Shown here: piece after piece, positions 55,013 to 56,720 of the stretch
Numbering within the stretch: the first letter of the stretch is position 1
Layout of the letters: each line of letters opens with the position of its first letter
NCBI GenBank assembly: GCA_030682795.1
Contig: JAUXNJ010000040.1
Location: forward strand, 1 to 64,000
Direction of reading: 5' to 3'
DNA from: Sphingobacteriaceae bacterium
GTDB lineage: Bacteria > Bacteroidota > Bacteroidia > UBA7662
DNA: 64,000 nucleotides
The notes under the pieces: generated by a model
The model's input: the letters and a program-made list of their open reading frames with translations, nothing else
Told to the model about the DNA's origin: nothing
Database searches by the model: none
Made by a program: the position numbers and the translations under genes

Positions 55013-55252
55013 TTATTTGATTCGACCGAATTCGATTAAAACTGCACGCACTTCTATCGCATTGCGTTGGGTTATTTTAACTATCAAGTCGATGTCGATG
55101 CCGTTGTCAAAGGCTTGTAGCGTTGTTTTAATAAAGCTTTTTTCTTCCCCCTCCAAAGCGCCGTTTTCGTAAGCAGTCTCAATCATCGACTCGGTGATGT
55201 TGGTGCCTTTGATGAGTTCGTGCAGTTTGGCTTTGTTTTCGGGTGAGATCAT
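55013..55252 (-). CDS. stand-alone Rpn C-terminal domain, copy 3
   Basis: 79 aa, MISPENKAKLHELIKGTNIT, ESMIETAYENGALEGEEKSF, then a shortened second half ending VRAVLIEFGRIK. It has the same fold text as the C-terminus of the Rpn nuclease at 55794-56720 but lacks the MVKGEQQQ linker. Its start overlaps the stop of copy 2 (ATGA). It is closest to copy 1 at its N-terminus (ISPE.KAKLHELIKGTN). It may act as an antitoxin-like partner of the nuclease (inference; see copy 2). Confidence 0.75.
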   Translation of the reverse strand: MISPENKAKLHELIKGTNITESMIETAYENGALEGEEKSFIKTTLQAFDNGIDIDLIVKITQRNAIEVRAVLIEFGRIK

Positions 55253-55515
55253 GGCTTAACGATTCGGTTGTTTTCAACTAAGATGGTACGCACTTCGTCC
55301 ACTGTGTGCTGCGTAATGTCGGATATAAACGCGATATCGGACCCTTTATCAAAGGCACGCAAAACGGTTGTGATAAGTTGCCGTTGTTCCCCATTTACCA
55401 TTCCCTTCTCTTCCCCCTCCAAAGCGCCGTTTTCGTAAGCAGTTTCAATCATCGACTCGGTGAGGTTGGTGCCTTTGATGAGTTCGAGGTATTTGGCTTT
55501 GGTTTCGGGTGACAT
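55249..55515 (-). CDS. stand-alone Rpn C-terminal domain, copy 2
   Basis: 88 aa, collinear over its full length with residues 222-309 of the Rpn nuclease upstream, starting at the same MSPETKAKYLELIKGTN and ending with the same VRTILVENNRIVKP. At DNA level 55249-55515 and 55794-56060 (both 267 bp) differ at about ten positions by eye, so the duplication is recent. In known Rpn systems an internal start makes a short C-terminal protein (RpnS) that inhibits the full-length nuclease. This gene encodes such a protein as a separate unit. Confidence 0.8.
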   Translation of the reverse strand: MSPETKAKYLELIKGTNLTESMIETAYENGALEGEEKGMVNGEQRQLITTVLRAFDKGSDIAFISDITQHTVDEVRTILVENNRIVKP

Positions 55516-55521
55516 GGAGAA

Positions 55522-55797
55522 TTACTTGATCCGCTGGTGTTCTTTCAAAATGCTTTCAACATATGCCACTGTACATTCGTTAATACTCGCGATTAAAAGT
55601 ATTTCAAGGCCTTTGTCGAAAGCATTGAGGATTGTCTTTTGGAGTTGATCGTGTTGCCCTTGCTCCCTTCCTTTTGCCATTCCCTTCTCTTCCCCCTCCA
55701 AAGCGCCGTTTTCATAAGCAGTCTCAATCATCGACTCGGTGAGGTTGGTGCCTTTGATGAGTTCGTGTAGTTTGGCTTTGGTTTCGGGTGAGATCAT
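55522..55797 (-). CDS. stand-alone Rpn C-terminal domain, copy 1
   Basis: 91 aa: MISPETKAKLHELIKGTNLT, ESMIETAYENGALEGEEKGM, a Q/G-rich linker AKGREQGQHDQLQ, then KTILNAFDKGLEILLIASIN and VAYVESILKEHQRIK. The first half is nearly the same as in the nuclease C-terminus; the second half has diverged. The ATG overlaps the stop of the full-length nuclease gene (ATGA), so translation is probably coupled. It is followed after 6 bp by copy 2. Confidence 0.8.
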   Translation of the reverse strand: MISPETKAKLHELIKGTNLTESMIETAYENGALEGEEKGMAKGREQGQHDQLQKTILNAFDKGLEILLIASINECTVAYVESILKEHQRIK

Positions 55798-56720
55798 GGC
55801 TTAACGATTCGGTTGTTTTCAACTAAGATGGTACGCACTTCGTCCACTGTGTGCTGCGTAATTTCGGATATAAACCCGATATCGGACCCTTTATCAAAGG
55901 CACGCAAAACGGTTGTGATAAGTTGCTGTTGTTCCCCTTTTACCATTCCCCTTTCTTCCCCCTCCAAGGCGCCGTTTTCATAAGCAGTCTCAATCATCGA
56001 CTCGGTGATGTTGGTGCCTTTGATGAGTTCGAGGTATTTGGCTTTGGTTTCGGGTGACATATCGTCGATTTTTAACTGTTCAGCAACTTCGGCAAGGCCC
56101 TTAGCCTGGTAGGTTTTGGGCAAGGTGCTCGTTTTGAGGTAGTAAATCCACTCGTCGAGCGTATTGCGCGCTACTTCATCAAAGTTATTGATTTTTAGTA
56201 AATAATACTCCGGAAACAGCTCTCCCGCGAGCATTTTTCCATATTTTTTGCGCTGTAACTTGCTCAAGGCGAGCACGTCATGCTTGTGCTGGCCTCTAAA
56301 GGCGAGCTGACCATGATATACGTAGTCGCTGCCTTGTCCCAGGTCAAAGTAAAGGATATGCACCGAATATACCTTGCGCACTTCCCCATATTTGGCACCC
56401 CTTTCGAGGTAGTCGGTGATGAGCTTGGAGGCGCCAAATAAGATGCGCTGAAAGTAGTCAACCTCGTCGTGGTACTGTACCTCAATAATCACAAGCTCTT
56501 GCAAGTGGTTTAAGCACAACAGGTCAACACGATTTATTTTCAGTTCTTCGGCATCCGCATTGCCTTCCGACTCCAACAGATTTACAATCTGAATGTCTTG
56601 ATGTAACAATTCGGTTAAAAAGCCTTCCAGAATCACAAAATTGGCTTTGTTCCGAAGCAAACGCTTCAACGCCCAGTCAAAACTGATGAGGGTGCGTTCA
56701 GATGGATGGGGGTGTGCCAT
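55794..56720 (-). CDS. Rpn-family recombination-promoting nuclease (PD-(D/E)XK)
   Basis: 308 aa from the ATG at 56720 (MAHPHPSERTLISFDWALKR). N-terminal nuclease domain: FDWALKRLLRNKANFVILEG, FLTELL, NRVDLLCLNHLQELVIIEVQ (Asp and Glu-x-Gln of the PD-(D/E)XK core), YHDEVDYFQRILFGASKLI. The C-terminal 88 residues begin at an internal Met (DDMSPETKAKYLELIKGTN, ATG at 56060) and form a helical domain. Rpn proteins cut DNA and some protect against phages; in E. coli the C-terminal part is also made alone and blocks the nuclease. Here the same domain is repeated three times as separate genes directly downstream. Confidence 0.88.
   Translation of the reverse strand: MAHPHPSERTLISFDWALKRLLRNKANFVILEGFLTELLHQDIQIVNLLESEGNADAEELKINRVDLLCLNHLQELVIIEVQYHDEVDYFQRILFGASKLITDYLERGAKYGEVRKVYSVHILYFDLGQGSDYVYHGQLAFRGQHKHDVLALSKLQRKKYGKMLAGELFPEYYLLKINNFDEVARNTLDEWIYYLKTSTLPKTYQAKGLAEVAEQLKIDDMSPETKAKYLELIKGTNITESMIETAYENGALEGEERGMVKGEQQQLITTVLRAFDKGSDIGFISEITQHTVDEVRTILVENNRIVKP

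What the first reader, a model, noticed from the sequence alone, without database searches (positions are those of the whole stretch)
55013..56720. Rpn nuclease followed by three detached copies of its inhibitory-type C-terminal domain
Seen directly: the 88 C-terminal residues of the nuclease, which begin at an internal Met, recur as three separate, translation-coupled genes of 91, 88 and 79 aa. The 267 bp of copy 2 differ from the nuclease tail at about ten sites; copies 1 and 3 are similar, so the unit (tail plus copy 1) was duplicated as a block. Known: in E. coli Rpn proteins the same region is made from an internal start and inhibits the nuclease. Inference: a toxin with an amplified, partly diversified antitoxin set, perhaps to raise dosage or to counter phage inhibitors.
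Basis: partly seen in the sequence, partly recalled or inferred. Interest (0 to 1): 0.75.

Follow-up and report, generated by a model that had tools for sequence, protein, structure and literature searches.

The report
Nuclease toxin with swappable tail copies
Behind a bacterial DNA-cutting toxin sit three spare genes for the toxin's own tail, the part that in known relatives doubles as its antidote; two of the three no longer look matched to the toxin, which suggests tails that are exchanged rather than extra antidote.

Summary
A 308-aa Rpn-family nuclease (PF12784/TIGR01784; minus strand, 56720-55794) is followed by three intact, closely packed genes (91, 88, 79 aa) that repeat its C-terminal part. 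Detached RpnS antitoxin genes behind rpn genes are published for E. coli (Zhong 2023), one per locus; I found none in print with three. New here: (1) The copies are mosaic: the first 36 codons are 93-96% identical in every pair, but the rest of copies 1 and 3 is only 53-59% identical. (2) In a sister species the same locus has the same nuclease body and a tail that switches type at that boundary (105/108, then 93/153 bases identical). (3) The helix that sets toxin-antitoxin matching in E. coli differs in length from the toxin's by +4 and -8 residues in copies 1 and 3; only copy 2 matches. Lengths differ for 7 of 9 intact detached copies in Bacteroidota and all 12 distinct E. coli pairs read. 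One E. coli strain carries as toxin tail the protein that another carries as detached copy. I conclude: an Rpn toxin-antitoxin locus with exchangeable tail cassettes; copy 2 is a plausible extra antitoxin, copies 1 and 3 are not matched ones. No function was tested.

The parts
55794..56720 (-). Rpn-family PD-(D/E)XK nuclease (RpnL-like), 308 aa from ATG 56720 (313 aa if GTG 56735)
   Evidence: PF12784 E 1.4e-20, TIGR01784 E 1e-15, both over cut-off; D71, E85, Q87 (313-aa numbering) invariant in an alignment of 30
55794..56060 (-). C-terminal tail of the nuclease, from an internal Met; presumed intragenic RpnS-type antitoxin (88 aa)
   Evidence: copy 2 starts exactly at this Met; Met at this column in 15 of 63 homologues with a residue there, Leu in 47; internal translation not tested
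55522..55797 (-). detached tail copy 1, 91 aa; variable helix 4 residues longer than the tail's; different-type 3' half
55249..55515 (-). detached tail copy 2, 88 aa; same helix length as the tail, 93% aa identity
55013..55252 (-). detached tail copy 3, 79 aa; variable helix 8 residues shorter than the tail's
55953..56060 (-). conserved 5' module (36 codons) of the tail; the same module lies at 55687-55797, 55408-55515 and 55142-55252; proposed homology arm
   Evidence: 92.6-95.5% nt identity in all six pairs; dS 0.12-0.19 among the four window copies
55794..55952 (-). variable 3' part of the tail (repeat helix + two short helices, HTH-like); counterparts 55522-55686, 55249-55407, 55013-55141; proposed exchanged cassette
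   Evidence: 53.5-58.9% nt identity except tail/copy 2 (96.9%); dS 1.6 to saturated except tail/copy 2; AlphaFold2 block-mean pLDDT 94-96 for residues 51-80 of copy 2

Best explanation
An Rpn toxin-antitoxin locus whose specificity part evolves by cassette exchange. Shown: the copies share a nearly identical first module and carry different second halves; the orthologous nuclease of a sister species has the same body and module but another second half; in E. coli a detached copy's end also occurs as the toxin's own tail in other strains. Inferred from that: homologous recombination through the shared module moves second halves between the nuclease tail and the detached genes. Because in known Rpn systems the antitoxin is made from inside the toxin gene, one such exchange would change toxin and antitoxin together and keep them matched. 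Inferred for this locus: copy 2 is a matched extra antitoxin; copies 1 and 3, whose repeat helix is 4 residues longer and 8 shorter, do not inhibit the resident nuclease but act as spare specificities, past or future tails, and may inhibit Rpn nucleases of that type if they enter the cell.
For: Mosaic within the array: 5' module 93-96% nt in all pairs, 3' half 53-59% except tail/copy 2; dS 0.12-0.19 vs 1.6 to saturated. Variable sites in the 5' module support three conflicting groupings of the four copies (codons 9-10; 18 and 36; 27), which needs exchange or repeated mutation. Tail and copy 2 differ at 4 of 24 synonymous sites in the module and 0 of 36 after it (Fisher P 0.02). Window vs L014 at the same locus (priA and the glycosyltransferase gene conserved): body 608/660, module 105/108, 3' part 93/153 identical bases, Fisher P 2e-13 for module vs 3' part. 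Helix length unlike the own toxin's in 7 of 9 intact Bacteroidota copies and in 12 of 12 distinct E. coli pairs (8 rpnE, 4 rpnC). E. coli: all 4 single-copy rpnE loci read have the detached-type end; the L139 tail is the same protein as the L142 detached copy, with 2 of 198 nt different. Intact frames and a purifying pattern in the 3' halves (dN/dS 0.13-0.28 where dS is not saturated) speak for translation.
Against: No genome was found that carries the 3' half of copy 1 or 3 on a nuclease (60 genomes each), so exchange between the tail and these particular copies is inferred. The mismatch in E. coli is no more than expected if lengths vary independently (0 matches of 8, 0.62 expected, P 0.48): it argues against length being kept matched, not for selected mismatch. 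At L208 and L213 the copy is 92-96% like the tail over the matched stretch, no mosaic. The rule that length must match rests on one published construct pair. The internal start Met is absent in most homologues. Detached tails are rare (7 of 143), so they are not needed for Rpn function.
Confidence: 0.55

Rival explanations
1. Orphan antitoxin array: each copy is an old or foreign antitoxin kept because it protects against Rpn nucleases of other specificity (kin, plasmids, incoming defence islands), like orphan immunity genes; tail switching is a side effect.
For: Intact frames and purifying pattern in the diverged halves; helix lengths unlike the own toxin. Orphan immunity arrays built by sequential displacement are described for V. 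cholerae T6SS (PMC5361080, abstract and opening of the introduction seen).
Against: The one Rpn paper I read describes no delivery of the toxin between cells; the sister-species copy is a 47-aa truncated remnant, so it is not always kept.
Confidence: 0.2
2. Neutral by-product: tail duplications arise by unequal recombination or by the nuclease's own cutting, drift in repeat number, and are lost again.
For: Truncated remnant in L014; single-copy and two-copy rpnE alleles both occur in E. coli; lengths behave as if independent; rarity (7 of 143); Zhong et al. suggest RpnL may itself start such recombination.
Against: Three intact, overlapping or closely spaced frames with dN well under dS in the diverged halves; YpaA was detected as protein in E. 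coli (PMC10327210).
Confidence: 0.15
3. Antitoxin dosage: the copies raise the amount of inhibitor for the resident nuclease.
For: Copy 2 matches the tail in length and at 93% aa; detached copies would be free of the tie between toxin and antitoxin amounts.
Against: Copies 1 and 3 differ by +4 and -8 residues in the matching helix and by about half of all residues after it; in E. coli 0 of 10 loci with a detached rpnE-type copy have equal lengths.
Confidence: 0.1

Closest known systems
E. coli RpnL/RpnS intragenic toxin-antitoxin, with detached rpnE_S (ypaA) and rpnC_S genes (Zhong et al. 2023, PMC10327210)
   Same: nuclease plus C-terminal antitoxin-type domain; separate copy of the tail behind the gene; 4-residue repeat helix that varies in length; fusion or loss of the detached copy already reported there
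   Different: three copies in tandem instead of one; nuclease of the PF12784 branch in Bacteroidota instead of E. coli Rpn; sharp mosaic inside the copies; length mismatch of detached copies not discussed in the text I read
Type I restriction systems with duplicated hsdS genes that switch specificity by recombination (PMC7394358, title and start of abstract in a search listing only)
   Same: exchangeable specificity parts next to one active gene; a 4-residue repeat spacer is known in EcoR124 (as cited in PMC10327210)
   Different: no toxin-antitoxin relation; there the switch is the reported finding, here it is inferred
Orphan immunity gene arrays of V. cholerae T6SS (PMC5361080, abstract and opening of the introduction seen)
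   Same: row of non-matching immunity-type genes behind one active effector gene
   Different: secreted effectors against neighbours; effector and immunity genes are separate genes

Membership tests
Rpn family nuclease (TIGR01784 / PF12784) | profile match over curated cut-off | tested here: met
   58.3 bits vs 52.1 and 74.5 vs 27.4
Rpn family nuclease (TIGR01784 / PF12784) | PD-(D/E)XK-type catalytic residues kept | tested here: met
   D71, E85, Q87 present and invariant in an alignment of 30; that these are the catalytic ones is recalled from the superfamily
E. coli Rpn branch (PF04754) | match to the YhgA-like Pfam model | tested here: not met
   no PF04754 match at E up to 1; PF12784 instead; PF04754 is named for the E. 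coli proteins in the start of the abstract of PMC5350276
RpnL/RpnS intragenic toxin-antitoxin | internal start at the tail | tested here: inconclusive
   ATG in window, L014-L020 and L024 and a few others, 15 of 63; Leu in 47. Copy 2 starts at this Met. No translation data
RpnL/RpnS intragenic toxin-antitoxin | RpnS fold: long first helix plus two short helices, as in RpnA-S (7th0) | tested here: inconclusive
   model has helices 3-16, 20-56, 61-68, 72-81; 7th0 aligns over 46 of 46 residues, Z 5.4, rmsd 2.0, but tied with unrelated HTH proteins; profile hit to 7th0 E 0.72 at the right place
RpnL/RpnS intragenic toxin-antitoxin | variation in 4-residue steps in the first helix | tested here: met
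   window +4, 0, -8; L017 -16, -4; L208 +4; L213 -8; L020 0; exception L214 -35
RpnL/RpnS intragenic toxin-antitoxin | tail protein inhibits the nuclease | not testable with these tools
   needs expression
Known defence system in PADLOC | profile match | tested here: not met
   no match up to E 1 for any of the four proteins

The most novel reading that the evidence does not exclude
A self-matching specificity switch: because the antitoxin is encoded inside the toxin, recombination with a neighbouring array of tail cassettes re-keys toxin and antitoxin in a single event, and the unmatched cassettes act as antitoxins against differently keyed Rpn nucleases. This would be a toxin-antitoxin system with a built-in library of keys.
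Probability: 0.3. Interest if true: 0.75.

Novelty: new variant of a known kind. Interest (0 to 1): 0.5.

Why it matters
Detached RpnS genes are taken as second copies of the antitoxin. Here and in the E. coli loci read, most do not match their own toxin in the one feature shown to control matching. That turns an open question, what the extra copies and the fast-changing repeats are for, into a simple test with cloned E. coli genes, and offers a route by which an intragenic antitoxin can change without a toxic mismatch.

Tried and rejected
Dosage as the general explanation: rejected for copies 1 and 3 on length and sequence. Phage origin or phage decoy: no match of the nuclease in viral contigs or of copy 2 in phage records; YpaA matched 8 of 50,697 phage records, not followed. 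Transposition: not tested beyond the site without the locus in G002. Bacteroidota-type promoter motif (motif recalled): 4 matches in the window, none near the locus, chance level. Foldseek of both models gave no match at E 0.001 or better; 7th0 was not among the 50 rows shown and appears only in the second look. The PDB profile search with tails hit resolvase HTH domains (E 0.0006), read as a shared HTH-like fold only. Association of the internal Met with detached copies (4 of 15 vs 0 of 48 in one panel, P 0.002) is not used as evidence: window and L014 are one locus, and copies found later (L208, L213, L214) seem, by eye, to have Leu there.

Rows dropped: 2 of 9 flagged loci (L073, L119; matches of 16 and 18 residues). 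In one search rows of L001-L013 repeat the window or L014, and L027 and L073 rows are cut off by a contig end or weak; the L126 and L119 rows are weak or upstream. One E. coli fetch (L144) has an IS element in rpnE and was not used; MG1655 rpnC (L130) has no detached copy annotated. Errors corrected: the L014 column in the site table was out of register (right); the L146 row used a wrong anchor (right: 40 vs 24); the heading '>=95%' stands over a 90% filter.

Full report
Observation. On the minus strand an Rpn-family nuclease (PF12784, TIGR01784) is followed by three intact genes that repeat its last 88 residues. Tail and copy 2 differ at 10 bases; copies 1 and 3 match the tail at 64% and 61% aa over the aligned stretch. 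The genes overlap by ATGA or lie 6 bp apart. The sister protein starts at the position of ATG 56720, so 308 aa is the better length.

Mosaic. In all six pairs the first 36-37 codons are 92.6-95.5% identical in DNA. After that the pairs fall to 53.5-58.9%, except tail/copy 2 at 96.9%. Synonymous divergence jumps from 0.12-0.19 to 1.6 or saturation at that point, again except tail/copy 2. Sites in the module group the copies in three conflicting ways. So the halves have different histories.

Sister locus. In G001 (its contig length equals that of CAMCHJ010000009.1, locus L014) the locus lies between the same priA and glycosyltransferase genes. Nuclease body 608/660, module 105/108, 3' part 93/153 identical bases: the tail has been switched at the same boundary. 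Behind it is a 47-aa truncated copy. In G002, of the same genus, priA is followed directly by the osmC-like gene with no Rpn gene on that 9-kb stretch, so the locus is accessory.

Helix length. Zhong et al. (PMC10327210; main text to the end of the Methods and figure legends read) showed for RpnC that antitoxin and toxin must have the same number of 4-residue repeats. In the window the stretch from EGEE to AFD is 17 residues in the tail, 21 in copy 1, 17 in copy 2 and 9 in copy 3. In L017, a Saprospiraceae locus with two copies, the differences are -16 and -4. Over all 9 intact Bacteroidota copies 7 differ; of the seven differences six are multiples of four, one is -35.

E. coli as a check. 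I read 15 rpnE loci: MG1655 and 14 chosen from the 60 rows listed of 5,371 records; one is broken by an IS and was not used. Ten have a detached copy, 8 distinct pairs, none of equal length. Shuffling the pairs gives 0.62 matches on average and none in 48% of shuffles, so lengths look independent; they are not kept equal. The other four have no detached copy and their tail ends in the detached type; the tail of L139 is the same protein as the detached copy of L142, 2 of 198 nt apart. In the listing 24 of 60 rows show rpnE alone with a span of 941 or 965 bases; only 4 of these were read. Which form is older is not settled. For rpnC, 5 loci with a copy gave 4 distinct pairs, all unequal: -10, -16, -14, -14, so only one of these is a multiple of four.

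How common. Of 143 distinct nucleases with at least 600 nt held downstream (from 200 stretches, mostly Bacteroidota), 7 have a real detached tail: window (3), L017 (2), L014 (remnant), L020 (1), and L208, L213, L214 (1 each, one genome). Two more flagged rows were spurious. Two or more copies: 2 of 143; three: this one.

Structure. AlphaFold2 of copy 2 gives a long helix 20-56, which holds the variable stretch, and helices 61-68 and 72-81, at high confidence in the C-terminal part only. RpnA-S (7th0) aligns over all its 46 residues (Z 5.4, rmsd 2.0), but unrelated HTH proteins score the same. The full-length model is moderate (mean pLDDT 72.5) and found no clear relative.

Mechanism. Best supported is cassette exchange through the shared module. 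Shown: mosaic, sister switch, an E. coli tail equal to another strain's detached copy. Inferred: homologous recombination as the agent, internal translation, inhibition, and the roles of the copies. The weak points are that no nuclease was found that wears the half of copy 1 or 3, that the internal Met is not general (15 of 63), and that the length rule rests on one published pair of constructs.

Known or new. Single detached RpnS genes, their loss, and their fusion to the nuclease are in print. A row of several, the mosaic boundary and the mismatch were not in the text I read; searches listed no paper whose title or abstract start concerns arrays of RpnS genes. The supplements of Zhong et al. 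were not open to me, so a row of copies may be shown there.

Noticed in passing
L099:6905-8002 (E. coli MG1655 rpnE-ypaA): ypaA, flagged as a pseudogene in RefSeq, is an open 61-aa frame whose repeat helix is one 4-residue unit longer than that of the RpnE tail next to it.
   Followed up: yes
L208, L213, L214 (one genome, G585): Three Rpn loci in one genome each carry one detached tail of 124-140 aa, unequal in helix length to their own toxin's tail.
   Followed up: partly
L094:5050-6801: The sister genome has an HNH-endonuclease protein and a HIT protein between the array and priA; the window has an OsmC-like gene on the other side instead. The priA-glycosyltransferase interval looks like a turnover site.
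   Followed up: partly
G000:C3:15134-16054 (L096): A second Rpn nuclease in the window's genome, about 60% identical, with the internal Met but no detached copy found near it.
   Followed up: partly
phage records OR845340.1 and OR850890.1: Short unannotated phage records encode a tail of the RpnE type (43% identity); contamination or phage-borne antitoxin, not examined.
   Followed up: no
G058, G562, G067: Genomes with 24 to 52 first-look candidates for TIGR01784, only six scored in each; possible Rpn expansions.
   Followed up: no
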